NCBI GenBank assembly: GCA_027475525.1
Contig: JAMWFC010000032.1
Location: 930,001 to 994,000 of the forward strand
Direction: 5' to 3'
From: Macrolepiota albuminosa
Taxonomy: Eukaryota; Basidiomycota; Agaricomycetes; Agaricales; Agaricaceae
Length of the DNA: 64,000 bases
Shown: piece by piece, positions 25,612 through 63,975 of the stretch
How the letters are laid out: each line of letters starts with the position of its first letter
Position numbering within the stretch: position 1 is the stretch's first letter
Notes under the pieces: generated by a model
The model's database searches: none
Seen by the model: the letters and a program-made list of their open reading frames with translations, nothing else
What the model was told of the DNA's origin: nothing
Program-made: the position numbers and the translations under genes

Positions 25612-25613
25612 AA

Positions 25614-25631
25614 TTGGAGCCCACCGTGAGG
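25614..25631 (+). other. Primer binding site of element C
   Basis: TGGAGCCCACCGTGAGGG follows the LTR end after a few bases. It begins with TGG as expected for pairing with a tRNA CCA end. Element D has the near-identical sequence at 51979. Confidence 0.65.
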
Positions 25632-28542: not shown

Positions 28543-28545
28543 CTC

Positions 28546-34712: not shown

Positions 34713-34947
34713 TGTAACGAAGTTACAGAGATTGTGAGAGCTTAGGTTCACACTGCACAGAATCAGACCAGTCCGGTCTATTGACTATGTAGTATCAACA
34801 CAAAATAAGCTGCTTTGTAAGCAGCTGGTAAACTAATTTATATAATAATGTAAATTAATATTATATTATAATAAATATAATATAATAGTATCTACTGTAA
34901 GGTAAGTAAAGCTATGTGGCCAACGCCACATAGCGGACTACGCTACA
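34713..34947 (-). repeat. 3' LTR of element B
   Basis: 235 bp, on the plus strand TGTAACGAAG..ACTACGCTACA. It contains the GCTATGTGGCC..GCCACATAGC hairpin also present in the other LTRs of this family. Confidence 0.88.
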
Positions 34948-34958
34948 TACCCCCCAAT
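34948..34958 (-). other. Polypurine tract of element B
   Basis: On the minus strand GATTGGGGGGTA abuts the LTR start TGTAGCG. In element A the same place reads GAAGATG and is decayed. Confidence 0.75.
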
Positions 34959-34992
34959 CAGACCAAGCTACGGTCTTGAGATAATACGACGG

Positions 34993-38309: not shown

Positions 38310-38411
38310 GGTTGGGGAAAAAAGCGAAAAAGAAATTTCGCCTTTTAAGACGTGTTTCAGCCACAGCTGCTGACCAACTCAGCCAAGCCGCGATCGGCAC
38401 TGCCAATCAAA

Positions 38412-45066: not shown

Positions 45067-45135
45067 AATATAATAGTATCTACTGTAAGGTAAGTAAAGC
45101 TATGTGGCCAACGCCACATAGCGAACTACGCTACA
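45067..45135 (-). repeat. Truncated 5' LTR of element B
   Basis: Only the 69 bp next to the target site remain, matching the right end of 34713-34947. The rest of the LTR, the primer site and the gag leader are missing, with gag joined directly. Confidence 0.85.
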
Positions 45136-45284
45136 GCCTATTACCGTATCTCGCCAGGGAACAAATTGACTTGCCGCTTGAAGCGCTAGATATTGACACT
45201 GCTAAACTAAGGGAACTTGAAGAAACTGACTTATTGGATGATGATGATTTGCCGACTCTGGTTGAAGAAGAAGAAAATGATTAA
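45136..45284 (+). pseudogene. Integrase tail of element C, right of B
   Basis: Resumes the frame broken at 34712: L-P-Y-L-A-R-E-Q-I-D-L-P-L-E-A-L-D-I-D-T-A-K-L, then an acidic end. Element D has the same end (59575-59717). This proves that B inserted into C. The first five bases are the target duplication. Confidence 0.88.
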
Positions 45285-45714
45285 AAAAGAATATATTGAT
45301 GAGCTCCCTTTTTCTATTACTTATCTTACTTATCTTTCTTGCCGATACTTACTATACTATATTCAACAGACATTTCCTTACATAGTCAAGCCGCAGCACT
45401 AGCGTGTTGCCAACGCTTAGCGCCCTGCGCAACTCTCGCCAAGGGTTTTTTGCTATGATGATTTACTGAGTGTTTCCCTTTTTTCCTCGAAATTTGTCTA
45501 AGTCCCTCACCTACTTCTCCTCTTACTGGCACCTACCTTAAAAATGCTTACCGCTCGTCTTCCCTTTGCCTTACTTGACTTACCCTGTGCTGGTGCACTA
45601 ACTCAGACTGGTCTTATACTTTCACTCGCCAATGAAGCAACAAAAACTTGTACAAGATGGGCAGTAACAAAAACAAAATATATACAGAAACGGCCTATCT
45701 ATGCTAAGGTCCGT
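45285..45714. other. Spacer between convergent pol and antisense gene of C
   Basis: No gene. A block around 45445-45485 (GATTTACTGAGTGTTTCCC) is conserved in element D near 61645, so this is likely the shared 3' end region of the two convergent transcripts. Confidence 0.5.
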
Positions 45715-48089
45715 TTACTTGCTATTGTCGTCCATTGGTAAGGAGTCGTCAGAGACTGGCAGGGAGGAATCACGAAGAGGAAGAAGGTCGCCAGGCAAGA
45801 TGTTGTTGGAAGTTTGCCAGTCCAGGGTGGCTTGGCAATCTGCTTGGTAATTGCACAGGACATGCAGGCTGCGACCCAAGTTAGAATAGCACAGACAAAG
45901 CGCCATGAGCTGGCCCCGGACTCATTCTTGTTCCCACTCCATTGCCGACTCCATCATTGCCACCCTCCTCAAAAACCTCTCAAGCATCTCCTGTGGGTTA
46001 AGCGCCACCACCGGGTATATGAGGTCTTGCCCCAGCCAGTTGAAAGCGTCGCCAGTAACCATTGGCTGCAGCTGGGGAGTCCAAGAGGAATTGACCCTGG
46101 CGACCACGGGGTGCCTAGGCTCCAATCCGGCAACGTCCTCGGAGTCTGACACCTCCCAAGGGGCAACGCTACCATAGGGAGGCAGCCAGCGCCACTCAGG
46201 CTCCTCCCGGGTAACTCCTGCTGCTCCCTCCCCTTCTCCCCCTACCGCCTCCTTTGCGGGTGCCTCCTCCTCGTCACCTTCACACTGGGTCGCCAAGGTC
46301 TCGTCTTCCTCCCCATCTGCGTCTTCGTCACCAGCAGTGGTGGCCACTGCCAATAGTTCCTCCTCCTGCTGCTCTTCCATTGGTGGGGGGACCATACCCG
46401 CATCGTCCTCAGCGGCAGTCGGCAGAGAAACCCCCCTCAGATGGATGGGAGAAAGCAACTTACTTGGCCCAGCCTCCGAATCCCTTACTGGTAGGCGAGA
46501 GGCAGCAAGCGCCTTCTCTAGCTCCTCCATCTCCACGTCCTCGGGGGTAGGGGGAGAAGACTCCACTACCCACGCACGCTTAGCCTTGCTCTTCCCTTTG
46601 GCGGGCGAGGAGACTTGTTGTTTCAAAGAGACCGTAGTCCCTTGGCGCTCTCTGGTGCCACGGTTGCCGACTGTTGCGGATTTGTCCTCTTGACACGTCA
46701 GCAGCGCCAGGGAACTCTTGTTGATTGTTGCCGTGTCTCCAGTGGCCTGCTTCTTCCTCTTCCCCTCAACAAACTCCCACGCCCTCTTGACAAGGACGGT
46801 GCGCTTGAAAGTGCGCTCCACTACCATGTCGGGAGCTCCACCGCGTTCATGACTCTTAGCGCCGTCCAGAGTGCAAGCCCGTTTCAGCGTACCGCACCGG
46901 TAGCAGGGCTGGCCACCAGTGGGATACCAACACCCCTCTGGGTCATTGTCAGCCCAGCACTTGTCGCACTACAAGAATGTTAACAAGAGCGGTAAGGAAA
47001 GCCAAAGTACTTACCGCTCCTTGGGAGTCCTTGAACTCCCGTCTTACCGCTGGGCTTGCCGTCCTCTTGTCCTTCATCTCCGGCAAGACCACCCCCGCCT
47101 CCATTCCTTCATCCAAAACCACCTCATCTCGTCGCGCTACCAGCAAACCCTTCAGCTCTGCATTGCTAAAGGAAGTTTGCGTTGGCGCCTGCCAACTAGT
47201 TGGTTAGCAGGGGAAGTACCTTGGCATAACAAACTTACCGTGTAACAAGGGGCGGCAGCCTTACGAGACTTAGAATAGGATAAGAGACGGGCGCCAGCGG
47301 TAAGAACACCTGAACTTATCTTCTTTTTCAAAGTCTTGCCAGGCTTGACCAGAGAGCCTGATTTGCTTGCCAGCAGTGCTGGGCTTCGGGCACTACTGGC
47401 ATGGGAATCCTTCTCACCTGACACCTGCCTCCTTGCAACTGGCGACTTCTCGCTGGCAACCAGGTTCTTGCCAAGGGCCTCTCGCTCCTCCAAGGCCTTG
47501 GTCCTCTCCTTGGCGTCTTGGGAGGCCTCTTCCAGCACGCTCTTGCGAATTGCTGCCATCTCAGCATCCACCTGCAAATTGGCGAGAGGCGCCAATACCT
47601 CTTGCTTACTGTGAGGGGACAGATCAGACCACAGCTAAGTTAGGAATCACAGTTAGAGATACTCACTCAGGCGCTGGCGCGCTTACCGTCATTGGCAAGG
47701 TGCCAGAGAGGATGTCCTCCAACTCGTTCTCAATAGTTGGGATGGGAGGAGGCACCTGGGGGATCGGTTAGCTAGCAATGCGGCAAGCAACTAAAAGAGC
47801 TTACAAAGCGAGAAAACGGCGCTAACCAGTCGGTGCCACGATTATCAACATAGCGGGCTTGGCACCACTCCCGCACCTCGATCTCCCTATCCTACCCTAC
47901 GCCAAGAACGCAAACCTCATACCAGCGTTCTAACAGCTTCATCACAGCAACAATCAAGTTTGGAGGCGCCTCCACACCCACACCCTCGATGTGCCTAATA
48001 AAGTTGTTTGCCTTGTCAATATAGGCGGAGGCGGCGTCTTGAGCCTCACGAGACAGTATGGGAGGCAGAGTTGGAATGTGGAAAGACAT
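45715..48089 (-). pseudogene. Antisense gene of element C, Zn2Cys6-like six-cysteine protein
   Basis: Runs opposite to gag-pol. M-S-F-H-I-P-T-L-P-P starts at 48089. Exons follow with a Glu/Ala/Lys coiled-coil-like part (K-E-R-T-K-A-L-E-E-R-E-A-L), then the 58-codon exon 47188-47015 between introns 47189-47238 (50 bp) and 46969-47014 (46 bp), then an exon from 46968. The latter begins with C-D-K-C-W, giving C-X2-C-X8-C-X8-C-X2-C-X6-C with C-W-Y-P and C-Y-R-C. An acidic, Pro/Glu-rich middle and a C-terminal part (A-F-N-W-L-G-Q-D-L-I-Y-P-V) follow. A TAG at 47892 and a TGA at 45922 interrupt it; D lacks the second. Cysteine spacing is close to the fungal Zn2Cys6 cluster (X6 in place of X8), so DNA binding is possible but inferred. 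Confidence 0.7.
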
Positions 48090-48246
48090 ATTATTTTTAA
48101 AGAGCACCAGGTAAAATCAGAGAAGAGAGGTGAAGTCCAAACTTATGCGCCAGGACTATAAACGAAGTTTGGAGAATGCACAGACCACTTGTCACAAAAG
48201 CGGTAACGGTAGCCTTATTTGGTGACTGAGGACAGTCAATTTTTCA

Positions 48247-48258
48247 GTTGGGGGGAGA
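48247..48258 (+). other. Polypurine tract of element C
   Basis: GTTGGGGGGAGA directly precedes the TGATAGGACC start of the 3' LTR. Confidence 0.8.
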
Positions 48259-49194
48259 TGATAGGACCCCATACAGGATCAGCGCATCAACGGCAGGCTA
48301 CGGCAATGTGGCACGGGCTCAGGGTACCTTAGCGCGTGCTAACTAACCAATTTTGGCAATATTTGATGGCTGCGCATGGCAAGAAGCAGATCCAATCAAT
48401 GATAGCGCCAACGGCAGCAAGAATGACAACTGACAGATGGCATCAGTCACTGACGACAGCGCTTAGGGAGAAGCCTGATGATCTATCAAAAACTGACGGA
48501 CAGCTTGGCATTTGTCCTTGGCGTCTGACACCGCTTAGCACCTCAATCTGGCGCCTGACATCGCTAAGCATTTTGGACAGAAAGAAGGGTGATGGATTGA
48601 TGGTTTAGCTTCGCGATCTGCCGCCTGGCATCACTAAGGGTCTTGAATGGACGGTAGGGATCTGAAACCATTGGAGCTACCCCTATGAAATTTTCTAGTT
48701 TACCGCACTTTGGCAATGGTTGGTCACTGGCGACAGTGAACTCCTTGTAGTATATAAAGTACTTACTGACTTGTACATACCCATCGAACAATAGAGCAGA
48801 GTTTCCTGCTCCCCTTTCTTCAGTCTCTCTTACGCTCGAGATTTCATTTACGGTCAGCAATGTCGAACTCGTCGGCAGTTGCAGACTATCGCTAGCCCTC
48901 GACCTATTTGTGCCTTGCAGCTACGGCAGGCATTTACAACGCTTAGACTTCGCTAAGCTTACTGTGTTCTTGCCGCTGACATTGCCATGTTCGCTTACCG
49001 CTTCTTTCATAGGCGCTTTACCTTAGCGCTTTACACTTGTCAACCCCCTTACCAACTATACTTTTATTTTCATAGGCGTGTTCTCTGGGACCTGCCCGGG
49101 ACTCCTCATATCACTTATAGCGCACCCAACGCAAGCTTTTGGTATGGTAACACTATTGATATATTTGTTACTGACCAAACTCTGGGCGTCATCA
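48259..49194 (+). repeat. 3' LTR of element C
   Basis: 936 bp, TGATAGGACCCC..GGGCGTCATCA. A TATATAAAG at about 48752 on the minus strand side and an A/T-rich stretch follow the same layout as the solo LTRs at 26228 and 32800. Confidence 0.85.
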
Positions 49195-49467
49195 CCGTTG
49201 CAGTCCTTCTGGCAGCTGTGTAACTGGGGGAGTTAATCTCCCTGGCATCTTGTCCCGTGGCCATGGCTGGCTATCCTGTTGTGAGCTCTCAGCTCTTCGG
49301 GCCTCACTCTCATTCCCAAGCAGGTTAGTGCTCTGATCTTGGTCTTGAGCCTTGGGTCTTGACTAACCCACATTGGACACTGGTGCATCCTGAGTGTCTG
49401 CTGAGTCTCCCTGTAGGTCGTGGGCATTCCGCCTGCTATCAGTGGAAACTGCAGGTATGTGATTACT
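49195..49467 (-). pseudogene. gag N-terminus of element A, right of C
   Basis: M-S-N-H-I-P-A-V-S-T-D-S-R-R starts at 49467. After one TAG the frame runs through R-P-K-A-Q-D-Q-D-Q and N-E-S-E-A-R-R-A-E-S-S to L-P-E-G-L-Q-R at the C boundary, where the gag at 25290 picks up. It is Gln/Asp/Ser-rich like the N-terminus of B gag. Confidence 0.65.
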
Positions 49468-49601
49468 CATTGATTCTCTGTTTGAAATTTGCATGGTGTG
49501 GCTGTGCAAGAAGCTCGAGAAGCTGATAGAGTTCTGTCAATGAACTTAGCGACTGACGTCGGATGCTAGGCAATAGATCCTAGCTGGCAGATTCAAAAAA
49601 G

Positions 49602-49817
49602 TGTAACAAAGTTACAGTTATGTGAGAGCTTAAGATTCACATTGCACAGAATCAGACCAGTCCAGTCTATTGACTATGTAGTATAAACAAAAAGTAAGCT
49701 GCTTAATAAGCAGCAAGTTAAGACTATTTATACTAATGTAAATAATAATAATATATTATTGACTACTAAAGTAAGTAAAAGCTATGTGGCCAACACCACA
49801 TAGCAGACTATGCTATA
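49602..49817 (-). repeat. 5' LTR of element A
   Basis: 216 bp, TGTAACAAAG..GACTATGCTATA, sharing decayed positions with 16126-16378 (for example AAAGTTACAGTTATG) against the less decayed LTR of B. It lacks the expanded ATA repeat. Confidence 0.8.
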
Positions 49818-50900
49818 TGGTACCACAGTCAATGATGACGCTGATGGATGGAGATGCGGCATGGACTTCATGGCTGTGTCCAGATGTAATTGCAAGTGTG
49901 ACATTTTCACCTGTAATGTCATCATGGGCATTGATGGCAAGGGAAGTGAGGAAAGCATAATTTTCTTCCTTCTCCTCAGTTTCAGCAGCATTTGCTGATT
50001 TGCTTTTATCTGCCTTATCTTTTCCCTTTCCTTTGTGCTTTTTCAGCCACCATTTGGATGCTTTGCCCACCATACCACTGCCTTCCTCAAAGCATTTGTC
50101 CTTTGTATGTCTATCCTTGTTGCAATTTTCACAGTGTCGCTTACTCTTGTCTTTGGATTTAGGTTTTCTCTTTTCCTTTGTATCTTTGGGATCATTGCAA
50201 GCCTTTGCATGTGCAGCAATCATTGTCTCATGCTGGCAATTAATGCTCGTTTCAATAGCAGCACTATTTGCTTTCTCATTGAGGTGCCAGATGAGATCCT
50301 GGCTTGAGACTGGTTTCTTAGAGTTGCATGCAGATATTGCAAGCATGGTGAACAAAGGTTTGTATGTGGGGGCAAGAGATAGCAATGTGCAGATGTAGCT
50401 TGTAAATAATGCATCGGACAGTGGACAACCGATTTCAGCAAGACGTTCTTTAATTACAACCTACTAGTGAGGTGCGTATGCATGTCAATTTCACTATTCT
50501 CGACAAAGTGGGTGTTTTGCAGTTGATCAAGGAGATCAGTTTTGTACATGGCCCCTTTACTGCCATGAATTGACACGAGCTTTTTCCACACAGCAGTAGC
50601 AGTGGGTTCACCTTTAACTTGGTGAAAGGTAGACTGATTGACCATGCTGTAGATAATTTCACAAACTTGAGCCTCTTTCTGCAACCACTCCTCCATGGCA
50701 TCCTCAATTTTGTCAATCTGATTGTCAGACAACGGAGCCAGGGATTTGTCATCACAATGAAAGGATCCCTTGCACTTGACAAGCATGACCAGTTTACACA
50801 CAGTACCTGTAAGGTGTCTCCAGAGCTTTTTTGATGTTACAGCGTTGGTGATGCATTCCTGGTATGTAGGCCAGTTTGAACTGTCAGCTGCAAGCATCGG
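49818..50900 (-). pseudogene. Ty1/copia gag and start of protease, fragment
   Basis: Minus strand. D-S-S-N-W-P-T-Y-Q-E-C-I starts at the D boundary. K-L-W-R-H-L-T-G-T, A-T-A-V-W-K-K-L-V-S-I-H-G and N-E-K-A-N-S-A are typical of the copia gag (UBN2-like) family. The zinc knuckle is C-E-N-C-N-K-D-R-H-T-K-D-K-C (near 50085-50130), followed by V-I-I-D-C-G-T, where a Cys replaces Ser in the protease D-S-G. Both ends are cut: by A at 49817 and by D at 50901. A frameshift lies near 50455. Confidence 0.85.
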
Positions 50901-51976
50901 TGATAGGCTTCTACTCGGGCTGAGCGCATCAAGGGACACATGATAGGCCAACCAACACTTGACATACTGAGGACTCTAGCGACCAGTTGGGAATATAGAG
51001 CAGCTCTAGCTCTGGCAACCGACTACAGGATTTAGACATTTATTCTAACCACTAGCTACCAAGCCTTCAGCACACTCCATTCACCTATCCCAAGGACAAA
51101 GGAGGCTCATAACGTATAGCGCTAACACGACGGCGGGAGAGGACTCTAACTAAACCCCAATCACTTCCAGAAGGAGCCAGCAGCAGGTGCTGCCATTTGA
51201 CGAGGCACTTCAATCAGAAGTCTAAAAGGATCAATGACGGCGGCACTGGATATACTTAAATCCGACATCTGGACCTGTCAGGAACTAGTACAATGTGTAG
51301 CACTGACATTAGCGCTCACGGCGTCTGTCAAGGATTTCCCGACCATACACCAAAACAGCCTGGCCATTTGGAGTTATAATAAAAGTGAGCAGACTCAGGC
51401 AATTCTAAGCCAAATATGGAGTCACTGCTGGTCGCCGTAGGTCAGAACGCCGTTGGTTGCCGCCATCCATGTGCAAAAGGTCGCCGTTGACAGGTTTCCG
51501 TTAGAGGAAACCACGAGGAGAGGCGCTAGGAGGTAGCGCCGCAGATGGACTTGTATCTTGGTAAACACAGTAGCGCATAGTATATAAAATAGCTACTTTA
51601 CGTGTATATAACAACGAATCATAACCCCTTGCACCCGCACAGTTACACTTAGCGTTCAAATCGCACTAGCTTTCTTTGACTTTGTTACTAAGTTGGGCGC
51701 TAGCCTTGTCTATCTCGTCTTCATCATTTACGGTGCCACCTACAGGCACACTACGCTGTGCTACTTGTCTTTTCTTCAATATCTTTGTCTAAACTACGAC
51801 GCTTACCGTCTGCCAGGTAGCCCCCGAAGCGCTATAATCTAGTGCATCGTTTTACCACCTCCACTCGAGCACACCGGGACCCTGTCAGAACTCTTCACAA
51901 CTACACACGCCAAGCGCTGGAGATGGCGTTGTACTGCGTATACGTCCAGCGCACCCAACCACAGTTGGCATCATCA
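50901..51976 (+). repeat. 5' LTR of element D
   Basis: 1,076 bp, TGATAGGCTTCTAC..GGCATCATCA, followed by the primer site. The inverted solo copy at 29409-30451 confirms both borders. TATATAAAATAG at about 51581 is a likely TATA box. Confidence 0.85.
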
Positions 51977-51978
51977 TT

Positions 51979-51996
51979 TTGGAGCCCACTGTGAGG
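51979..51996 (+). other. Primer binding site of element D
   Basis: TGGAGCCCACTGTGAGGG; one change from the site in C (CpG to TpG). Confidence 0.65.
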
Positions 51997-52584
51997 GGTT
52001 CTTCTGAGACAGAATTCTGCTGGAAACTCAAGCCCAGCGACAGCGCCACCTTCTGTTGGAGAGCGCGTTTGAACCAAGTACCACCGACTCACCACACTTA
52101 CCAGGTGCGCTACTGAGACAGACTTTGGATCAGGAGCTTGAGGCCGCCCCAGACAGCCTAGCCAAAAGCTTTTTCCCTTTTTCCTGACCGTTTGAGTACT
52201 TAGCAGGCGAAAACCATATGCTGCTTACTCCTCTAGAAGAGTTATCTAGGTTATTATTGCCAGAACCTAGCGACTCGGAGCCAACTGAGCCAATACCTAT
52301 GACATCAACGCTAAGTAATATGAGCATCACCGTCCTTCCTACCTCGACAAACACACCTATTGGTATGGATCAGCCAAACAATCAGCGCATGCCATCCAAA
52401 AACCACTTCTTGTCGCCAAAATGGGACAAAACAAAGCCCCGTGAACTAATGCAGTATTTCAAAGAGTTGGAATATTTGCTACGCGATTGCCGGGTGACCA
52501 ACAATACACAGATGAAGGAATACGCCACCAGATACGTCTCATACGATACAGCCAAATCATGGACAGGGTTGAAGGAGTTCCAAG

Positions 52585-52738
52585 GACTTACTAGTGACGC
52601 AGCACCAAGGCCTTTTACCTATGATGAATGGAAAAAGGCTATCATTCATTTATATCCTGGCGACTTACTAGTGACGCAGCACCAAGGCCTTTTACCTATG
52701 ATGAATGGAAAAAGGCTATCATTCATTTATATCCTGGC
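52585..52738. repeat. 77 bp tandem duplication in gag of D
   Basis: 52585-52661 returns from 52662, period 77. Confidence 0.92.
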
Positions 52739-53128
52739 GCTGAAAAAGCTACGCGTTATATGGTAATGGAGATCCAGAAGCTAGTACAGGACACCTTTGC
52801 GGCCGGGATCTATACTCTAGGGGCGTTATCAACTTATTATCATGACTTCCAGCGGATAGCGAGATGGCTGGTCCAAAATGGGAAGTTATATGGGAACAAG
52901 GAGCGCCGTTTGTTTCAACAAGGATTCCTGACCTCGTTATGGACTAAGATTGCGCGACGCTTGGAGATCATTATGCATGACCATCACCCCGAGGAACCCT
53001 ACGACATAGAAAAGGTCTTTGAGGCAGGAAAGTGGGTATTAAAAGGCACGGATACGGGTATACCATTGCAGCGACCTGGCGTGGACTATGAAGGAATGGC
53101 ACCCAAGATAGAGTCGCCAGCGCCTAGC

Positions 53129-53282
53129 GCCGCCAATAACCATAACGGGTACGTCAAGAAGGAGGATTTGGAAAATGCCGTCAACAATGCAGTTGCTAAT
53201 GTCATGCCGCCAATAACCATAACGGGTACGTCAAGAAGGAGGATTTGGAAAATGCCGTCAACAATGCAGTTGCTAATGTCAT
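53129..53282. repeat. 77 bp tandem duplication in gag of D
   Basis: 53129-53205 returns from 53206, period 77. Confidence 0.92.
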
Positions 53283-53588
53283 GAATAAACTGGAAACCTT
53301 GATCTCAACTAGTCTTTTGGCACCTAGAAACAACGTACAGATGGGACTTTGCCATTTTTGTGGCGAGGCAGGACATACCATGACCCGGGGTAGGTGCGCT
53401 ATCCTTGAACAGTATCTGCGACAAGAGAAGGCGTGCCGTGGAATGGACGGGAAACTAGTCTTACCTTTGGGCACTAACATTCCCCTTTATCCCGAACATA
53501 AGACGTTCCAGGGATGCATTGACGAGTGGCACCGTCAGAACCCTGGGAACTTAGTGACAGGCAACCTGAATAGCACAGCGACAACAGA

Positions 53589-53742
53589 AGCTGAGGCAAC
53601 TCCTCAACAAGCGCTAATTCACGAAGTACTCCAGCTAAACGCTATCAGTGACCAACCTATGCTGTAGCTGAGGCAACTCCTCAACAAGCGCTAATTCACG
53701 AAGTACTCCAGCTAAACGCTATCAGTGACCAACCTATGCTGT
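53589..53742. repeat. 77 bp tandem duplication in gag of D
   Basis: 53589-53665 returns from 53666, period 77. It creates an in-frame TAG at the join. Confidence 0.92.
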
Positions 53743-54601
53743 CCCGCGAGGAGAAAATTGAGATGCTAGAGAAGGAACTGAAGTTGCTAAAGAATCAGGT
53801 CTTCAATGGGGTAGAAATCAAAAAGGGCAAGCAGCCTTTGAAAGATTATAGACCGTCAGGCGCGACGACAGGCGCCGCCCCAGCACCAGCCTCAACCTCT
53901 AGCGCTAACGACAAAGTACCCGAAGCAACCAAGGTGCCGGCCGTTCCGGAGCCACCGCTACATCCTTACGCTGGTCTCAGGGGCAACTACGCCCCGCCCC
54001 TTAACCATAACTTCGGAGCGCCAGATAAATCTATGGGGGATATCGACCCACAGCGCCTATATATGATCTGGAAAAGTCTAAGTTAGTTTTTGATCGCATT
54101 ATGCAAAGTCAGGTTACGCTATCGGTAGGAGAGTTATGCAGCGTGGCGCCAGATGTCAGGAACCAGATGCATACTGCGGTTACCCCACGACAAAATGTAG
54201 CTAACAATGTAGCGACAGTGGACAAATGTGACGACGCGCTGCCTGGTTTTGCATACATAACCGAGATGGTAGCTCCTGAAACCAAGGAAGAGGTCACACC
54301 ATCTAAAGAAGCCATGTCCGTCGACCCGGTCAAAACCTACCTCAAATCACTAAGATCTAGCGACGACCCCACCATCTTGACTGTAGCCCAAGACTCTCAT
54401 GTGATTCACTCAATTATGCTGACAGTTGATGGGAAAAGTGAAATAGAGTCTATCGTGGACAGCGGATCACAGATTATTTCAATGGCTGCCGACGTCGCTA
54501 ATGAGCTGGGCATCATTTACGATCCAACGATCATTCTTAACATGCAGAGTGCTAACAGCACGATTGATCAATCCTTGAGGATGGCTCGGAATGTGCCATG
54601 T

Positions 54602-55593
54602 TATGGTTGCCCTCCAGGACCAGGTCAAACTTTCGACCGAGCAAGCCAAACACAAGCTGATGGGGTCCTTTTTCTAAGTTACATGTCACCATGTCACACA
54701 CAAAACTATTATATAAGTTTTTAAACCAATATATTTCCATTGATGTTTAACTTTAGGGCGGCTTTCTGCCAACAACTGATCATGTGCTCGGATTTCTGCC
54801 AAAAACTGATCATGTGCCTGGGAAATCCCAAGTCTCACATCAACTTCAATTAATATTATTTACTGCAATACGAAAGTAATGGGGTGCCAGATACCCCAGT
54901 CACCCCTCAAAATGGCTGATAGGCTCATCTTCTTCCGTGATACATGAACAATCCACGCTTAATTTACACTGAAATTTTGACCTGGTCCTGGAGATATGGG
55001 TCGCCCTCTAGGACCAGGTCATGAACAATCCACGCTTAATTTACACTGAAATTTTGACCTGGTCCTGGAGATATGGGTCGCCCTCTAGGACCAGGTCAAA
55101 ATCTCCACCGAGCAAGCCAAACTTTAGCTGATGGGGTCCTTTTACTAAGTTACATGTCACTATGTCACAGACACAACTAATATATTAGTTTTATGTTAGT
55201 TTCAGTTGGCAAGTGTAGTCTCCGTGTTTTCTGAGTTACATGCACTCCCCAATGGATAAGCACAGACTCCCACATACCAGGAGTGTGCGTAATGCATTTC
55301 CTAAGGGTGGACGGCTCAAAACAGACAAATAACGAAGGACTAACCACAAATTGGGCAAAGTTGTTAGTTGCCAATAGTGTTACCAAAATGGTAATGCTCC
55401 TCTAAAAAAATAAAAAATAAAAAATAAAAATAAAAAAACTTCAGTTAATATTATTCACTGGATGCTTATTTCGAATGTAACGGGGTGCCAGATACCCTGG
55501 TCACCCCTCAAAATGGCAACTTTTTTCGTGATATATGAACGATCCGCTTAATTTACGCTAAAAGTTTGACCTGGTCCTGGAGGGCAACCGTAC
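54602..55593. mobile_element. Dimeric MITE in the protease of D
   Basis: Terminal inverted repeats of 28 bp start TAYGGTTGCCCTCCAGGACC and differ by one base (a CpG change). CATGT is duplicated at 54597-54601 and 55594-55598. An inner pair of repeat ends meets near 55000-55040 (GACCTGGTCCTGGAG, then CTCTAGGACCAGGTC), and the sequence after the outer left end (CGAGCAAGCCAAAC) recurs at about 55110, so two copies sit head to tail. A 77 bp duplication (54943-55096) inflates its length; the corrected length is about 915 bp. No coding capacity. Superfamily uncertain. Confidence 0.85.
54943..55096. repeat. 77 bp tandem duplication inside the MITE
   Basis: 54943-55019 returns from 55020, period 77. 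Confidence 0.9.
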
Positions 55594-55873
55594 ATGTGCT
55601 ATTGGTGATCTTACGTTCTATCTGCAAATTCACATACTTAGATCACTGGCATACGATTTATTATTAGGAAGACCCTTCGATGTGCTAGCGCAATCAGTAG
55701 TCAAAACAACATCCGAGGATGAAATGACGCTAACTATTAGCGACCCCAATTCAGGAGTCAGGAGAACGGTACCGACATTTCCTCGAGGAAGGTTCCAGAA
55801 GCCGGGACCGAGAAAGCAACCTTATGTTAGCGACAAACCTTGCGAGTGTTTTCCGGTACCATCGAGGAGATGA

Positions 55874-57490
55874 GTGATGAGGATCATGGAGATGAAGCGC
55901 TTATCTTGGACTATAATCATCGGACTGGGCAAGTAACCTTTATATTGAACTGGGCAAGTAACCTTTATATCACATACCCCTTTAGCCCCTGAAATCTTGA
56001 ACATTTCTACGTCGCTTACTAGCAAAGCTTTATCCTACTTATACCTCACTGCATCCGATATTACTGAAAACCTTTCAACAAACACTTATTTCGTTTCTAC
56101 TCCTGATACTAAAGAACCTTTCATATCCGGTTTTGCTAGAAACCAGAGTTCCATTTATAATACGTTTGCTAACAACAGTACCCCTAAGTGCAAAGGGGTT
56201 CAGGTTAAAAAGAAGTACAAACCAGCGTACCTGAAGAATTTTGCATCGAGAGAAAGATCATTGGAGACCCATTAGCGACCTTTCCTGAGCTTAATCTGAA
56301 CCCGCCACCCTTCAAGCCTACCGGACAATTTACGGAAGAATGACGGGCGCTATTCCTTAGCGCCCACGATACAGGCTTTCTATCGATGGCAGAACTAGAT
56401 GTACTGACTGACATTATGCGAAAGCAAAACAAAGCATTTGCTTGGGAGGATTCCAAATGCGGTAAACTTAGAACTGACTTCTTTCCACCAGTGGTTATAC
56501 CAATGATACCTCACGTACCTTGGACCGAGCATAACCAACCTATACCACCGGGTATTGAAGCCAAAGTTTGCCAAATTATTTGTTTCAAAATAGCGGCAGG
56601 AGTTTACGAGCCTTCCAATTCAGCCTACTGATCACAATGGTTTTGTATACTGAAGAAAAATGGAAAGCTACATATAGTTCACAGTTTGGAGCCACTAAAC
56701 AAAGTCACAATTCGTCATTCAGGGGTACCGCCCTTCCCCGATCACATTGCTGAATCATTTGCAGGAAGAATATGTGGCGCTACCCTGGATCTGTACGTTG
56801 GCTATGATGAGTGCTTGATTCACCCTTCCTCTCACGACTTAACGACATTTCAAATACCATTCAGAGTGCTACGACTGGTTACACTTCCCATGGGATGGAA
56901 TAATTCGGTACCCATATTCCGTGACAACATTACGTTTATTCTACAACCCGAAATACCTCACCATGTGCTTAGCTTTATCGACAATGTAGGCGTTAAGGGC
57001 CCAAAAGATTGGCGCCTTGTAGATGGCAAGCCTGAAGTGCACCCAGAAAATCCCAATATCCGCATGGCGCTATGGGACTTCTTCCAATTGGTTAACCGGG
57101 TGCTCCAGCATATGAAATATTGTGGCAGAACGTTCTCAGGACACAAGTTGGTTCTTTGTGCACCACAATTTAAAATTTTAGGGCACGTTTGCATGCCAGA
57201 GGGCAGGATCCCTGAGGAGAGCCGATTAGCGCTTCTGGAAAAGTGGGGAGTCTGCCATAATCTCTCGGAAGTTCATGCGTTTCTAGGCACGGTAGGCGTG
57301 CTGCGCATGTTCATACACCATTTTTCACATCGAGTGCACGTGCTAAATTGCTTAACTCATTCAGGGGTCCCCTTCAAATTCGGACCCAACCAAATTAACG
57401 CCCAAAAAGATTTGGTGAAGGCGCTGCAGGAAGCGAAGCCATTGGTACCCATTGACTATACTACGTCCGATCCCATTATACTTGCCGTTG
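55874..57490 (+). pseudogene. Reverse transcriptase of element D
   Basis: The linker has the same K-C-K-G-V-Q-V-K-K-K-Y-K-P motif as C, and a 25 bp direct repeat (GAACTGGGCAAGTAACC) at 55924. RT: L-D-V-L-T-D-I, F-A-W-E-D-S-K, N-K-V-T-I-R-H-S-G, A-T-L-D-L-Y-V-G-Y-D, L-P-M-G-W-N-N-S and F-I-D-N-V (near 56975), where Asn replaces the second catalytic Asp. A TGA at 56629 replaces Arg. The copy is catalytically dead whatever the assembly errors. Confidence 0.87.
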
Positions 57491-57568
57491 AGTGAAGGCG
57501 CTGCAGGAAGCGAAGCCATTGGTACCCATTGACTATACTACGTCCGATCCCATTATACTTGCCGTTGA
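57415..57568. repeat. 77 bp tandem duplication in pol of D
   Basis: 57415-57491 equals 57492-57568 with exact borders. Confidence 0.92.
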
Positions 57569-58437
57569 CACCTCTTACATTGCGGTTGGCTTCTTTTTAT
57601 GTTAATGTAATAGTGCGAATCGAAAAATCAGACGCTACAATCGCTTCGGATCAATTACCCTTAACGACAGAGAGTCGCGCTATAGTCAGCCCAAACTGGA
57701 ATTATACGGATTATTTCGAGCGTTTCAGGCGCTATGCATGTATCTTATTGGGGTTCGAAACCTGATTGTTGAAGTTGACGCATGCTACATCAAAGGAATG
57801 CTCCAGAATCCAGCATGTATCTTATTGGGGTTCGAAACCTGATTGTTGAAGTTGACGCATGCTACATCAAAGGAATGCTCCAGAATCCAGATATTCAACC
57901 CTCGGCTAGCATGAATTGCTGGGTAGTGGCGATACTAATGTTCCACTTTGAGCTCGTGCACGTCAAGAGTGCGTTTCACAGACCTGATGGACTATCTAGG
58001 CAACCTAGGCAGCCAGAGGACAAAGCGCTAGACGAAAGCGATAATGACGTATTTGACGACTGGATCGACCGGTTGCACGGTTTCATACATATTATTCAAT
58101 TGCCTATTTTGGCCCTTCACGAAGACCAACCTGTCTCGACCTGGCTACACCCTATCATTCCGTATCAACCTAAACCATATCAGACTCCGTCGACTTTTTA
58201 CATGGCCAGTATCTATAACGTCGCTAAGCCATTTAATGATCTAAAAATAGTCAAGGAACCCAGACCTTTACGGGAAGATAGTCGCAACCTCCCATATTCG
58301 GCGGTACCTTGTAGCACCAAGGCTAAGTCAGAAGACCAACGAGTTGATCAGGTTAGGAAGTGGTTACAGGATTTGCGCCGACTATCAGACCTTACGGATA
58401 CGGAATACGCCACCTTCATTTTGCTCACAAATCGGTA
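57569..58437 (+). pseudogene. RNase H and tether of element D
   Basis: D-T-S-Y-I-A-V-G-F-F-L-C opens RNase H, followed by a stop. Then Q-P-K-L-E-L-Y-G-L-F (Glu), L-I-V-E-V-D-A-C-Y and F-H-R-P-D-G-L-S-R-Q-P. The tether runs to T-D-T-E-Y-A-T-F-I, before the integrase. A 77 bp duplication is at 57736. Confidence 0.82.
57736..57889. repeat. 77 bp tandem duplication in RNase H of D
   Basis: 57736-57812 returns from 57813, period 77. Confidence 0.92.
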
Positions 58438-59717
58438 ATCAAACCAGAGGGCCGTATTAGGATTTTGCGCGCTATGCACAATGACTTGGGACATTGAGGA
58501 CTCTATGCGATGCGAGCAAATTTATTGGAACGTTTTTGGTGGCCTCAAGTTAGCGCCGATATCGCATGGTATATTCGCACTTGTCATCTCTGCCAAATCC
58601 AACAGACACGCCAAGTTCTTATTCCCCCAACCGTAGCGACCCCAGCACCCTTGTTCGGAAAGATATATATTGACACTATGCACATGTCCAAGTTGGGGCG
58701 CTACAAGTACATTATCCAAGGAAGGTGCTCGTTGGTACATTGGCCGGAGTTCCGTATGCTCCAGCAGGAAAATACCGACGCTATAGCTAAGTGGCTCTTC
58801 GAAGATATTATTTGTAGGTGGGGAGCCCTTCACGAGATTGTTACAGACAATGGAGCGCCGATAGTTAAGGCGCTTACCTACCTCGCTAAGAAATACAACA
58901 TCCACCATATTCAAATCTCAGGATACAATAAACGCGCTAACGGTATAGTGGAAAGGCCGCATTTTGATGTACGACGTGCGCTATTTAAGGCGGTAGACGG
59001 TGACAAAAGTCGCTGGAGTGAAGCGACTTATTCGGTCTTTTGGTTTGAACGAGTTACCGTACGGAGGAGGATGGGCTGTTCTCCTTACTATGCGGCGACT
59101 GGCACCCATCCCCTGCTTCCAGCGGACATTGTGGAAGCAACATACTTACAGCCTCCACCTAACTCAATCCTGTCCTCTACCGATCTTATTGCTAGGCACG
59201 CCATTGATTTACAACGATGCATGGAGGATCTAGAGCGCCTACATGAGGTGGTATTTCAAGCTAGACGACAGGCCGCATTACAATTTGAAAGCGAGCATAA
59301 CGCTACTATCCGAGACTACAACTTTACAGCTGGCGCCTTAGTACTAATGCGCAACTCAAAAATCGAAGTCACCCACAACAAAAAGATGCAACCCTGATAC
59401 CTAGGACCCCTCATAGTAGTTTCCCGCAATAAGGGAGGTGCCTACGTACTCTGCAAGTTGGACGGCTACCCTGATACCTAGGACCCCTCATAGTAGTTTC
59501 CCGCAATAAGGGAGGTGCCTACGTACTCTGCAAGTTGGACGGCTCAGTTTTGCATCGACCGGTAGTGGTGTTCCGACTCATTCCCTACTTAGCGCGTGAA
59601 CATATTCCACTACCTTTGCCGGCGCTAGACATTGACACCGCCAAGCTTCGAGAGCTGGAAGAGACTGAGTTGGTGGACGATGATGAGAACACTCTGGATA
59701 AAGATGAGGAGCAATAA
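58438..59717 (+). pseudogene. Integrase of element D
   Basis: H-N-D-L-G-H and C-H-L-C mark the zinc finger. I-Y-I-D-T-M-H-M (Asp), E-I-V-T-D-N-G-A-P (Asp) and G-I-V-E-R-P-H-F (Glu) form the D-D-E triad, intact here. The C-terminal part has A-L-V-L-M-R-N-S-K-I-E, then Y-L-G-P-L, G-S-V-L-H-R-P-V and an acidic end D-D-E-N-T-L. A stop at 59396 (CGA to TGA) and one 77 bp duplication (59391) break it. No chromodomain, unlike A and B. Confidence 0.87.
59391..59544. repeat. 77 bp tandem duplication in integrase of D
   Basis: 59391-59467 returns from 59468, period 77. Confidence 0.92.
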
Positions 59718-59880
59718 ACTTATACAAAACACGAGGCGCTAACTGTTAGCGCCCCTTGGGATCAGACTTAGGCAATCCGAAAACCAGAAAAGAATAAATA
59801 AACAAGCGGTACTAGTACACAGGGAACAGGCAATCAGACTACGACTACAACTAATTGAACTACCCTAAAGATGCAGACCG

Positions 59881-61420
59881 TCAACGTGGACCTTTCACTT
59901 GATCTTTAGGTTGCCTGCGGGTGGGAGGAGCGCCTGGAGGTGGCGCATTAGCAGAGGGAATGGGAGGAACGAGAACGCTAGGAGCACCTGGGCGAGGAGC
60001 ACGAGGAGCACCTGGAGGAGTGGCAGGGGGGTTGGGGGATGAGTACCACCCGTCCTCATCCGGGTGGGACTCAAACAAGGGGTAAGGAAAGGCTGTGTGT
60101 TCTAATATTGCCCGACGTGCATCAAGGTTGACGAGAGGGGAAAGGGGGAGCCAGGAGAGACTCTTAGAGACGGCATGGAGTTAACAACCTCAGGTTAGAA
60201 AGAATAAGAACTAACCAAAGTTCCCGTTTTGTGGAGTAGGCTGGCCAGACTCAGAGCGGTACCCGTAATCGGCTCCTGCACAACGCATGAGTATTACTCA
60301 CGACCTGCGCTAAGAGGAGGCGTACGGTGACTATGGATGGGTCGATGGCGACCATCCATTCTTCAGAAGCGTCGAGAAGAATTCAGTACCTGCGTACCAG
60401 GGTCATAGTGTTACCGTTCTCGTGGGGAAAGCCACCGGTAGGCATGAGCATGAGGAACTGCTCCAATCGGTCTAGGATAGCGGGACGGTAAAGACGTTTG
60501 GGCTCATCAAGGAGAAGGGGAACTGCTGGCATGAAGTGATACTGACCAGGTTAACAGCGCCAGAACCCATAAAATACCTCAAGCTACTTGCAGGGTCGCA
60601 GATGCGAGGGAATTCTTACATGTGCAAAACAATCACAAGGGGGGGCGACAACAACAATGGATTTCATATATCTACAACAAAAAGAAATCAACTATCCAAA
60701 ATCTGTCAGCCTGGTGGCGCCACGGAAAAGAAGGAGCCGACTTACATAAACAACATGGGAGACGGGCGAGCATCAAGGACCGGGCAAAAGAAGAGGCCTG
60801 GGAGGCCCCCAGCCTTCAGCAGGACCACGAAAAAGCCGGCCACCGGTAGACGAGCGGGGCGCCTAGCGAAGCGACGTGTTAGAAGGAAGAAAAGAGGTAA
60901 TAAGGCAACAAACCAGGTAGTGACTCTCCTCCAGCAGCAGCTCCAGACGTTCTTTTGTTTCCTTGGTCGCAATTTGCTTTATTTGGAGACTATCAGAAGA
61001 GAAGGAGGGTGAAAAAAGCAATAGCGCACCTGAAAAATCCGACTCCAGTTCTTCCCCATACCAAATCAGGTCAGCAGCAGCTCATCGTTCCAAATCTCAC
61101 AAGCCGCACAAAGGAGCTGACAGCGACGACCTAACTCAACGACTCCGTTGGTCAGCCTGGGCATGCCAACCGCTGGGTAGTGGTAGAAGAACGAGGTAGC
61201 ACGTTCCAGGAAAGTGGGGGGATCAATCATGACATGAGCGCGATCACAGCAGGGGGTCCACACAATGCCGGTTGGGCTTTCCATAGCGAAGACTGATGAG
61301 ACGCTGTCAAGGCATGGGCAATTGATAGGACTCGGGCAGTGTTTCAACCAGCAACAGCATGGGAGGGCACTTCTCAAGAGGCTTGGATCCTGACGCAGAC
61401 ATGAACCAATAGGATGCGCT
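59881..61420 (-). pseudogene. Second antisense ORF block of element D, unknown
   Basis: Minus strand pieces: M-R-S-A-L-P-C-C at 61377, P-T-F-L-E-R-A-T-S-F-F-Y-H-Y-P, then L-Y-R-P-A-I-L-D-R-L-E-Q-F-L-M-L-M-P-T-G-G-F near 60450-60520, and a Pro/Gly-rich end P-P-G-A-P-R-A-P-R-P-G-A-P stopping at 59881. Likely introns (GTACTG, GTGAGT donors) and stops prevent a confident model. C lacks this block, so D may have gained it or C may have lost it. A basic plus-strand frame (60536-61012) overlaps and may be a shadow. I recognise no family. Confidence 0.4.
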
Positions 61421-61812
61421 TGAACTTATTTTAGGTCGCACAAAGAGGAAGTTAACCTTCGAGATCTAGCGCTTATAGCCACCATCACCAAATAACCACA
61501 AGCAATCAGTGTCACTCTATTTCTTATACATTAAAACTTCTTGCATGAATCGACTTATTTTTCTACAGACGATACCTATTTCTTCCTAGGCTGGCGTGAT
61601 ATTGGCTATTGGATCGTGCTGGTAATAGGGGTTTTTATGCCATGATAATTTACTGAGCGTTTCCCCTTTTTTCTTACTTTGTATTTTGATTACTTACAAA
61701 CTAACGATTTCGAAACAAGGAGAGGGGAGCGTTTATTTTTGGTAGGGCTATCACAAACTACGTATCAAAAATTTCAAAGTCCACAAAAGTTCGAAGCGCT
61801 ACAGGCTGGCGA
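61421..61812. other. Spacer with conserved 3' region
   Basis: No gene. AATTTACTGAGCGTTTCCCC near 61645 matches the spacer of C at 45460. Confidence 0.5.
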
Positions 61813-63975
61813 CTACACATCAGACACGGAGGGAGCGGGATCACCCAAAGGAAGCAAGTCCCCGTCCTGAATGGCGTTACTCGCTTGCCACTCAAGCGCA
61901 TCAGTGATGTTGTCATGGAGCTCAAGCAGGAGGAGCTCACGGCGCGCTAAGGTGGAGACATGAGGACGGAGGAGGGCGAGTTCACTACCAATGACGTCGG
62001 TCGCGTCCTCGACCTGGCAGAGTTGTTGATGAAGATCGGTGGCAGGACGAAGGGGAGTGATGGGATAAGAGAACTCATCCCCAAGCCAAGGGTAGGCATC
62101 GCCGAAAACACGCATGGCAGGGGGAGGAGTCCAGAAGGGATCAAACTTAGCGGAGGTCAGCGGAAAGGTGAACTAACTAGGAAATGCAGACTTACTCAAA
62201 CGGTTATGGGAGCACGGGGGGTCCATTCATAGCGCTCATTGCCTGGGGACATGGCCCTAGCGGCAGAAAGGTGGATGCTATAAGAAGGCAAATACCTCCA
62301 GCAGTGACGGCGCTCGCCCTGAGCCACTAAGGTCCCTTCGGACTCAGGCGCAGTGGAGGACTCGCAAGTACTGGGGAAGGAGGAGAGGCTACAAGGCGGG
62401 GTAAGAAATGGGGTAATAGGAAGGGCAACGGAGGAGGCGCTAGCCGTGACAGGCTCGGGAGCAGGGGTAGCACCGGCAACAGACATCACGACATCTTCGG
62501 CGGGAGGAATATTCACAACGACAGGAAGCGAAGGAGTAGGGGACCTGGCGACAAAGAAGTTAGTGCAATCTGACAAGGAAAACTCGAAGACTACGCACCG
62601 ATTACCACTGGGGCCACTCTGATAAGGGTTAGCAGCGATAGGGGGAGTAATGCGAAGCAGAAGAGCGTATACCACCAACAGTGCATTGGTGTCGACTACA
62701 GGCCCAGCCTCATCGTCATCCTCGCCCTCAGCATCCCTCTCGGTATCCTTGCCTTCATCAGTAGACGACATGGTAGAAGACAAGACCACGGGAGTAGCAG
62801 ACGCTAACTCCTGGCGCTTACGGGGACTCTTGCCAGAAGAGGCAACAACGGGCTTACGCTTTGAAGGGACAGGATGACGGGGAGAGCGGGCGAAGAGGGC
62901 TGCAATGGTGGTACCATCTTGGGTGGTGGGGAGCGCTAGGCTTGCAGTGCTAATCATAGTGGGCTGACGGGTAGCGGCCAGATTGCGTTGCTGCAGGATG
63001 AAGGCCCGGGCGTTACGAACTAAGACTGCGTGTTCGTAATTGCGTTGCATGATAGCATCCCTACCACGTTCACGAGTACGAATCCCATTGAAGGCACAGC
63101 CCCATTTCAACGCATCGCAGCGGTAGCAGGGAAGAGAGGTGGTAGGAAACCAGCAACCCTCGGAATCGTTTTCAGACCAGCATTTATTGCACTAAGAAAG
63201 AAGTTAGTGATGTCAGCAACCTTTCAGGGACGAACAAGCACTTACCACGCCAATCTTTGTCCTAAAAGCGCAGCGCTCCACGGGTGCCACTGTAACCTTC
63301 TTTTTAGCGCCGAGTACTTGGACACCAGCTGGGAGGCCGGTATCAATAACAGTAGTGTCACAACAAAGGCACAACAGATCACAAAGCTCCGCATCGGTAA
63401 ACATAGTCTGGTTGGGCACCTAAGGAGGGCTCGATCAGGCGCTAGAAACAAGCAATCTTAAAAGGAAACACTTACGACATATAAAGGGGCAACGTGAGCA
63501 GGGAGATTGACCTGAGAAGCAAAATTAATAAAAGGACCAGAGGCAAGAAAACAAGGACAGACGGTACGTTTAGGAGGGCTAGCGAGAGCAGGGGGCACGC
63601 GATTAATAACAACGGCAAAGTTACGGGGGGGAAGGCGAGAAATAGTATGGGTAGGTCCGGGCCGGGGCTCACTGGTGGTAACGGCAATCTGTTTGATGGC
63701 CGAGTGGGGAGGCGCAGTACAAGTGGGAGAAGCGACAATGGGTGCAGTACAAGGGGGAGAGGCATCGCCACAAAAAGGACTACCAAGAACGGGAGGAGGC
63801 AGAACAGAAACAGAAGCAGCAGGAGCGGAAGGAGTGGAAGGAACGGTAGGGCCGACGGGGCACTAGGAAGACTGGCGACGGTGGGCAATGTAGCAACCGA
63901 CTACTCATGGTTAACATGGAAAAGGTGAGGAAAACAAGGAGGGAACTCACTTCACCAACCTCAGTACTAGCCAGC
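61813..63975 (-). CDS. Antisense gene of element D, Zn2Cys6-like six-cysteine protein, 5' end outside the window
   Basis: Opposite strand to gag-pol and homologous to 45715-48089. Exon 63419-63246 is 174 nt, the same length as in C, and starts V-P-N-Q-T-M-F-T-D-A-E-L (C: A-P-T-Q-T-S-F-S-N-A-E-L). A 54 bp intron (63192-63245) follows. The next exon, from 63191, opens C-N-K-C-W-S-E-N-D-S-E-G-C-W-F-P and C-Y-R-C, giving C-X2-C-X8-C-X8-C-X2-C-X6-C exactly as in C. Then come a basic Arg/Gln-rich part, K-R-K-P and S-P-R-K-R nuclear-signal-like runs, an acidic Ser/Thr/Pro region and, after a likely intron near 62130-62200, F-G-D-A-Y-P-W-L-G-D-E-F-S-Y-P and a Leu-rich C-terminus ending at 61813. Upstream exons reach Q-S-N-E-I-D-A-L-L-A-S near 63975. 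Function unknown; a regulator of the element is one inference. Confidence 0.68.

What the first reader, a model, noticed from the sequence alone, without database searches (positions are those of the whole stretch)
45715..63975. Two Ty3 elements carry an intron-containing gene on the opposite strand with a Zn2Cys6-like motif
Seen: in C (45715-48089) and D (61813-63975) the same gene lies antisense after the integrase. Both have the 174-nt exon between short introns and the identical C-X2-C-X8-C-X8-C-X2-C-X6-C spacing with C-W-[YF]-P and C-Y-R-C, while the rest has diverged strongly. Preserved cysteines and exon borders amid divergence point to selection on the protein. Known: Zn2Cys6 regulators use C-X2-C-X6-C-X5-12-C-X2-C-X6-8-C. 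Inference: a captured host-type regulator or DNA-binding factor that controls, targets or silences the element. I know of no described fungal Ty3 family with this layout. This is my best candidate for a new system.
Basis: partly seen in the sequence, partly recalled or inferred. Interest (0 to 1): 0.85.

Follow-up and report, generated by a model that had tools for sequence, protein, structure and literature searches.

The report
Jumping gene's shuffled antisense zinc gene
A family of mobile DNA elements in a termite-farmed mushroom carries, on its opposite strand, a gene for a cysteine-rich protein whose versions are old and shuffled while the rest of the element is much more uniform, as if the gene told one element's kin from another's.

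Summary
The window is Termitomyces. C and D are Ty3 elements with an intron-containing gene antisense between pol and the 3' LTR; the 174-nt exon and the C-x2-C-x8-C-x8-C-x2-C-x6-C motif are exact. Both window copies are decayed, but the gene is open inside LTR- and TSD-bounded 11.1-kb elements elsewhere in the genome. It belongs to the family: of 100 listed 3' ends, 65 have it by position and 12 of 12 more by sequence (23 unexamined). dN/dS is about 0.1; splice sites hold in introns that differ by 31-46%. New here: elements differ by 19-37% on average over exactly this gene, against 7-13% beside it. Median silent divergence is 1.90 in the zinc exon against 0.30 in integrase of the same copies. 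Exon alleles are reshuffled, and copies sharing an allele show no general excess of mutation. So old alleles, each under purifying selection, sit on a younger backbone. Best reading (inferred): a nuclear, zinc-binding, trans-acting regulator with allele-specific action, kept diverse by frequency-dependent selection. Every named homologue is from Termitomyces; it matches no Zn2Cys6 profile; host capture is unsupported. The layout is known from plants (Grande, Retand); the allelic cassette seems new.

The parts
25291..49194 (+). element C: old Ty3 copy, sense strand +, split by insertions (solo LTR 26228-27178 on -, fragment 29409-30450 shared with 50.9-52.0 kb, solo LTR 32800-33749, another Ty3 on - at about 34713-45135)
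   Evidence: BLASTN and TBLASTN of element e1 against the window; self-comparison
25641..29218 (+). C ORF1 (gag plus aspartic protease), interrupted
   Evidence: TBLASTN, main pieces 85-89% aa identity to e1 ORF1; protease domain seen in e1 ORF1
29149..45281 (+). C ORF2 (RT, RNase H, integrase), interrupted
   Evidence: TBLASTN; RT and RNase H Pfam hits in window ORFs
45715..48089 (-). C antisense gene, about six exons by comparison with e1 (borders of exons 2-4 read only by eye), decayed: stop in exon 1, early stop in zinc exon
47805..48089 (-). C gene exon 1 (285 nt)
47015..47188 (-). C gene exon 5, 174 nt
45715..46968 (-). C gene exon 6 with Cys6 motif at its 5' end
48259..49194 (+). C 3' LTR
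   Evidence: 82% identity to e1 LTR
52011..59711 (+). element D ORF1 (52011-55870) and ORF2 (55831-59711)
   Evidence: TBLASTN; weak protease and integrase zinc-domain Pfam hits
61813..63975 (-).
63246..63419 (-). D gene 174-nt exon
62196..63191 (-). D zinc exon up to an in-frame stop

Best explanation
The gene is a constitutive accessory gene of a Termitomyces Ty3 family. It is probably transcribed antisense from its own promoter between the 3' LTR and the start codon, and spliced; introns can persist because the genomic RNA is the other strand. It encodes a nuclear-type protein: N-terminal helical domain, six-cysteine motif, basic patch, acidic disordered stretch, C-terminal coiled coil. Shown by sequence: position, presence in every 3' end examined, splice-site conservation, purifying selection, and the gene being a cassette of old, recombining alleles on a younger LTR-gag-pol backbone. 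Inferred: transcription and splicing; and that the protein acts in trans on its own family (repressor/copy control, or anti-silencer) with allele-specific action, so that a rare allele spreads better. That negative frequency dependence would keep old alleles alive while backbones sweep.
For: Of ten fetched copies five have a clean LTR pair (96.7-99.9%), four of these with a 4-bp TSD, and carry the gene antisense between pol and the polypurine tract. 646 PPT-LTR junctions in the genome; gene at 65 of 100 listed by position and exon 1 in 12 of 12 more by sequence. dN/dS 0.09-0.12 at 0.1<=dS<=1, integrase 0.08. Intron 1 GT and AG 23 of 23; intron 5 GT 22 of 23 (one GC), AG 23 of 23; TATA-like TTTATAG at a fixed place in 20 of 20 C-lineage copies. 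Divergence steps up at both gene borders: zinc exon median dS 1.90 against 0.30 for integrase in 136 pairs of 17 copies, more than double in 102, less than half in 2; fourfold transversions 0.279 against 0.068. Reshuffling: e1/e4 share the zinc exon (dS 0.19) but not the 3' end (1.00); e4/e7 the reverse (2.51, 0.12). Copies sharing an allele show no general rate excess. Helical N-terminus and coiled coil predicted.
Against: No expression or binding data. No clear cognate target: LTR divergence does not follow the zinc-exon allele (Mantel r -0.03 to 0.15, L010 4979-5459). One LTR window (5339, only 70 pairs, not permuted) does correlate with the gene's 3' part (r 0.55), and exon 1 weakly with the LTR (r up to 0.41); 5' LTR correlations rest on 6 elements. 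Amino-acid change per silent change is no higher than in integrase, whereas recognition alleles usually show excess replacement (recalled). Deep zinc-exon classes number only 3 in the junction sample. The zinc motif is modelled with low confidence; no structural relative was found.
Confidence: 0.45

Rival explanations
1. Neutral mosaic: several old subfamilies each had their own antisense gene; template switching spread one successful LTR-gag-pol over all of them, and the genes, once too different to recombine, simply stayed different. The gene matters to the element but its diversity does not.
For: Sharp borders are expected where homology-dependent exchange stops; gene segments are linked to each other but hardly to the flanks; amino-acid change per silent change is as in integrase; only three deep zinc-exon classes in the junction sample.
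Against: Old lineages must survive several-fold longer than the backbone's in one genome, and the three deep classes are even (3:3:3) in the 9 sampled copies that held the exon, a small sample.
Confidence: 0.27
2. Escape from RNA silencing: sense and antisense transcripts overlap over this gene, so small RNAs arise there; copies with a nucleotide sequence unlike the majority escape, which drives silent and intron divergence while the protein is kept.
For: The divergent stretch matches the antisense gene, introns included (31-46%), while the leader differs by 5.8% in 18 copies; low dN/dS; Argonaute (Piwi) exons in the genome.
Against: Alleles do not avoid shared 15-, 18- or 21-base runs: observed counts are at or above the shuffle mean for all four gene segments. 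The leader, presumably transcribed too, is not diversified to the same degree (5.8%; 14.5% in the 12 junction-sampled copies). RdRP search did not complete. No small-RNA data.
Confidence: 0.2
3. Captured host transcription factor of the Zn2Cys6 class.
For: Six cysteines in two C-x2-C halves; a model puts a short helix after each C-x2-C, at low confidence.
Against: No PF00172 hit in 11 motif sequences at E up to 10; spacing x8 not x6; no named homologue outside Termitomyces.
Confidence: 0.05
4. Chance overlap: host genes independently overrun by elements, or a meaningless antisense frame.
For: None found.
Against: Same side, strand and distance from the PPT-LTR junction in the 77 of 100 shown, none of those examined by sequence lacking exon 1; dN/dS about 0.1.
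Confidence: 0.01

Closest known systems
Plant antisense additional ORFs between pol and 3' LTR (aORF-3R: maize Grande gene23, rice RIRE2, Silene Retand, PvRetro13)
   Same: Position and strand, presence in all or most copies, own promoter upstream of the gene (Grande), nuclear product (Grande), role undetermined. Seen in passages of PMC7264820 and PMC11963269.
   Different: Fungal host, several exons, six-cysteine motif, old alleles on a more uniform backbone. The word intron does not occur in either paper's main text, though PMC7264820 asks for spliced antisense transcripts to be looked for. No sequence comparison with these proteins was made here.
[quoted passage not shown] 2009; title only, in a reference list)
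   Same: Variable stretch near the 3' LTR of otherwise related elements, by its title
   Different: The title speaks of an untranslated region and satellite repeats; here the variable stretch is a gene under purifying selection. Paper not read.
HTLV antisense gene with a promoter in the 3' LTR (HBZ; name and details recalled)
   Same: Antisense gene near the 3' LTR (promoter stated in PMC7264820); nuclear regulator (recalled)
   Different: The TATA-like box here lies about 97 bases inside the LTR edge; no bZIP match in Pfam.
VANC anti-silencing proteins of Arabidopsis VANDAL transposons
   Same: Element-encoded, sequence-specific, target range diverges between relatives (abstract of PMC5735166)
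   Different: VANDALs are DNA transposons (recalled) with target motifs found; here no clear target and no homology tested.
Gal4-type Zn2Cys6 fungal regulators (PF00172)
   Same: Six cysteines, C-x2-C twice
   Different: First loop x8, no profile match, Termitomyces only so far
Immunity regions of lambdoid phages (recalled)
   Same: Diverse cassette on a shared backbone
   Different: No clear operator co-variation found here

Membership tests
Ty3/gypsy LTR retrotransposons | RT - RNase H - integrase order in pol, aspartic protease upstream | tested here: met
   Pfam on e1: protease in ORF1; RT, RNase H, integrase zinc domain in that order in ORF2; the RT match is weak, E=0.002, below Pfam's cut-off
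Ty3/gypsy LTR retrotransposons | LTR pair, target-site duplication, polypurine tract | tested here: met
   LTR about 950 bp, TG...CA ends, 4-bp TSD readable in e1, e5, e7, e8, not in e2
[quoted passage not shown]
aORF-3R (antisense ORF between pol and 3' LTR) | sequence homology with a plant aORF-3R | not tested
   no plant aORF sequence was compared; database searches listed no named homologue outside Termitomyces
Zn2Cys6 (PF00172) | C-x2-C-x6-C-x5-12-C-x2-C-x6-8-C | tested here: not met
   x8 between second and third cysteine in 9 of 9 zinc exons found by homology and in the aligned relatives; one search's scan imposed x8 and is no test
Zn2Cys6 (PF00172) | profile match | tested here: not met
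   0 of 11 motif sequences at E up to 10, with HMMER's filters on
Zn2Cys6 (PF00172) | binuclear zinc cluster fold | tested here: inconclusive
   models have pLDDT about 28-62 over the motif; no PDB match at E<=0.001
HBZ-like antisense gene | bZIP domain | tested here: not met
   no Pfam family at E<=1 for the zinc exon, P0014 or P0019; long C-terminal coiled coil predicted only
VANC-like anti-silencer | binds motifs in its own element and removes methylation | not testable with these tools
   needs ChIP and methylation data; LTR differences mostly at CpG hint at methylation

The most novel reading that the evidence does not exclude
An LTR retrotransposon family with an immunity-like polymorphism: the antisense protein recognises elements of its own allele type (to repress or to protect them), so alleles are kept for ages by negative frequency-dependent selection and are traded between elements by recombination while gag, pol and LTRs sweep, like heteroimmune phages or a mating-type locus inside a transposon population.
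Probability: 0.3. Interest if true: 0.92.

Novelty: new variant of a known kind. Interest (0 to 1): 0.74.

Why it matters
Antisense genes next to the 3' LTR are known in plants, but the 2020 review says their roles are not determined (passages of PMC7264820). Here such a gene occurs in hundreds of copies in one genome, is under clear purifying selection, and has alleles several times older in silent divergence than the pol genes beside them. That makes the question 'what is this gene for?' testable by evolution and by simple biochemistry. If alleles are specific, it would be a self/non-self system among transposons of one genome, and would help explain how a family stays active in spite of its own copies and host silencing.

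Tried and rejected
Host capture and Zn2Cys6 membership: no profile, no PDB sequence match better than E=0.1, no named non-Termitomyces relative. One search scored only the 7994 candidates sharing most words, and 21 of its 141 hits were not listed. NCBIfam gave nothing for the gene.

Mutation hot spot as the cause of the divergence: rejected, because among 9 pairs sharing an allele zinc-exon dS is at or below integrase dS in 7, equal within 0.01 in one (0.30, 0.29) and higher in one (0.34, 0.24). CpG decay as the cause: rejected, because fourfold transversions are four times higher in the gene.

A co-varying operator: zinc-exon allele does not follow the 3' LTR; one LTR window (5339, 70 pairs) follows the gene's 3' part (r 0.55) and windows next to the gene show r up to 0.19 with P 0.017-0.03 (300 permutations, zinc exon and exon 1 only). 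In the 5' part r reaches 0.6 in LTR windows 151-450 and 0.8 in the last window, with 15 pairs from 6 elements, too few to trust.

Selection to break short identical runs: not seen. Structure search: two weak models (pTM 0.30 each), no hits at E<=0.001. RdRP family search: three tries unanswered. Literature: no paper on this family by title and abstract start (3 listed), nor by title in the listings.

Rows dropped or limited: of the ten copies, e3 (L013/L014) gave no open motif by the scan and was not used; e6 and e10 were not used. One search's integrase comparison had 17 of 20 copies (D-lineage L034, L040, L042 gave no integrase codons; L029 only 47); e5, a near-duplicate gene, was left out there. 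One search counts only BLAST-aligned positions, which flatters the gene. One search dropped D-lineage copies and L029. The 12 sampled junctions are every third of the 35 unmatched ones, so they lean towards copies whose motif differs from the pattern; decayed copies were kept. The 14 copies were picked by me for variety, so cluster counts from them are not frequencies. In one search the start-codon column read ATG in 13 of 23 rows and was gapped or shifted in the other 10.
Full report
SETTING. The window is part of contig C78 of a 100.1-Mb assembly. Named protein relatives are all Termitomyces: 27 of 28 with one unnamed, the 120 listed of 141, 18 of 18. So this is a Termitomyces genome. Argonaute exons appear in near-identical pairs or triples on different contigs, which suggests that both haplotypes may be in the assembly; copy counts may be inflated up to about twofold.

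OBSERVATION. The gene is there as described. The 174-nt exon is exactly 174 nt in C and D and in element e1. Of the motif's spacings the scan fixed some; those it left free are the same in all 27 exons, and exons found by homology show the same first loop (9 of 9). C's element is an old copy interrupted four times, and C's gene has two early stops. D belongs to a more distant lineage (ORF2 pieces 45-90%, ORF1 pieces 46-65% identical in protein to e1).

ANATOMY. The motif occurs 677 times in the genome with up to three mismatches, 0 in the reversed control. Ten copies were fetched with flanks; five (e1, e2, e5, e7, e8) have a clean LTR pair. e1, e5, e7 and e8 have LTRs of about 950 bp, 96.7-99.9% identical, and 4-bp TSDs; e2 has a 99.9% pair over 873 bp but uneven ends and no TSD. 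e1 is 11,143 bp: ORF1 (887 codons, protease near its end), ORF2 (RT, RNase H, integrase), a 0.4-kb gap, then the antisense gene, leader, polypurine tract and 3' LTR. e1's gene is open in exons 1, 5 and 6; the borders of exons 2-4 were read only by eye. The start codon lies about 170 bases inside the LTR edge; a TATA-like TTTATAG sits 72-76 bases upstream of it in 20 of 20 C-lineage copies and in 0 of 3 D-lineage ones. The promoter is thus probably internal rather than in the LTR (inference).

PRESENCE. The PPT-LTR junction has 646 matches, 0 reversed. Of the first 100 listed, 65 have a motif at the right distance and strand in partial lists. Of the 35 others 12 were read: 12 of 12 have exon 1, 11 of 12 exon 5, 9 of 12 the zinc exon within 1.6 kb; 23 were not examined. 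The gene is part of the family, not an accident.

SELECTION. Nei-Gojobori dN/dS over pairs with silent divergence 0.1-1.0 is 0.10 (exon 1), 0.12 (exon 5), 0.09 (zinc part), 0.09 (3' part), against 0.08 for integrase. In the 12 junction-sampled copies, decayed ones included, it is 0.05-0.13. The acidic middle gave a median of 0.23. Splice sites are kept (GT 23/23 and AG 23/23 in intron 1; GT 22/23 with one GC, and AG 23/23, in intron 5), while the introns differ by a median of 31% and 46% at aligned positions.

DIVERGENT CASSETTE. Compared with e1 in 200-base windows, e2, e4, e7, e8 and e9 are mostly 86-97% identical in LTRs, gag and pol (extremes 76-99%); over most of the antisense gene they are 65-88%, except where an allele is shared (e4 92-94% over zinc exon and exon 5) and in exon 1 of e7, e8 and e9 (87-91%). 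In a full alignment of 20 C-lineage copies, mean divergence per 150 bases is 7-8% just before the gene's 3' side, 19-37% inside, 8-11% over leader and LTR start, 13% further into the LTR and 21% in its last window (28 pairs); three integrase windows reach 10-13% because a few copies are damaged there. Silent divergence in the zinc exon has median 1.90 against 0.30 for the integrase end in the same 136 pairs of 17 copies; it is more than double in 102 and less than half in 2. Fourfold-site transversions, which CpG decay does not touch, are 0.279 against 0.068, more than threefold in 70 of 105 pairs. At dS<0.35, 18 C-lineage copies fall into 3 integrase clusters but 11 to 13 clusters in each gene segment (copies partly picked for variety). 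In the junction sample, the zinc exon shows 6 such clusters, but only 3 deep ones at dS<0.7, of three copies each (9 copies); exons 5 and 1 show 7 deep ones each.

RECOMBINATION, NOT MUTATION. Segments of exons 3-6 are correlated with each other (r 0.61-0.92), exon 1 less (0.18-0.52), and the flanks hardly (mostly r below 0.25, with the exceptions told under Tried and rejected). Mosaic pairs exist: e1 and e4 share zinc exon and exon 5 but not the 3' end; e4 and e7 the reverse; e7 and e9 share exons 1, 5 and zinc but not the 3' end; 7 of 210 pairs are strongly discordant between zinc exon and 3' end. Where two copies share a zinc-exon allele, its dS is not generally above that of integrase (8 of 9 pairs at, below or within 0.01). 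So the gene does not mutate faster; its alleles are older.

PROTEIN. AlphaFold2 on the Termitomyces relative P0014 gives a helical N-terminus (pLDDT 60-88), a disordered middle and a long C-terminal coiled coil (about 90); the zinc region is poor. Lysine-rich stretches after the motif look like nuclear signals (by eye). No fold or sequence relative was found. A tree of 66 zinc regions, poorly resolved, puts T159's versions in one clade, mixes those of J132, T112 and Mn162, and places G000's in at least two lineages, C-like and D-like.

MECHANISM. Deep, recombining diversity on a younger backbone is what negative frequency-dependent selection leaves; the likeliest actor is the protein, acting in trans on its own kind. 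Against this, replacement change is not in excess and no clear target was found. Silencing escape explains intron and silent divergence but predicts broken identity runs, which are not seen; the leader differs by 5.8% in 18 copies and 14.5% in the junction sample. A neutral mosaic cannot be excluded. LTR pairs differ mostly by CpG transitions (23 of 32 in e7, 11 of 12 in e8, 1 of 1 in e1 and e5), so copies are probably methylated, which keeps an anti-silencing role open.

KNOWN. [quoted passage not shown]). VANC anti-silencers (abstract of PMC5735166) are the nearest functional idea. I found no description of this family or of such a cassette in the searches (listings seen only); papers outside that library were not searched.

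Noticed in passing
window 8509-14568: Gene-like region of long ORFs rich in Gly-Asn/Asp and His-His-Asp repeats with 9- and 12-base periods; possibly a metal-binding or structural repeat protein.
   Followed up: no
window 34713-45135: A different Ty3 element on the minus strand (CCHC knuckle, RT, RNase H, integrase, weak chromodomain) inserted in element C; a relative at 80-86% lies at 16126-25287.
   Followed up: partly
L021/L022 and L023/L024 LTR pairs: LTR differences are mostly transitions at CpG (23 of 32 and 11 of 12), a sign of cytosine methylation of element copies.
   Followed up: partly
window 59712-61812: About 2.1 kb between pol and the antisense gene in element D to which e1 has no match; content unknown.
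   Followed up: no
L019/L020: 5,857 bases are repeated at 100% identity within the 19-kb stretch (G000:C30), a tandem duplication or an assembly artefact.
   Followed up: no
window 5614-5984: Inverted repeat, arms 129 nt at 91%, 113 nt apart; possible MITE.
   Followed up: no
G000, Argonaute exons: Near-identical Piwi hits in pairs or triples on different contigs suggest that both haplotypes are assembled.
   Followed up: no
L010 5339-5458 (3' LTR): Divergence in this LTR window follows the antisense gene's 3' part (r 0.55, 70 pairs, not permuted), a lead for a cognate site.
   Followed up: no
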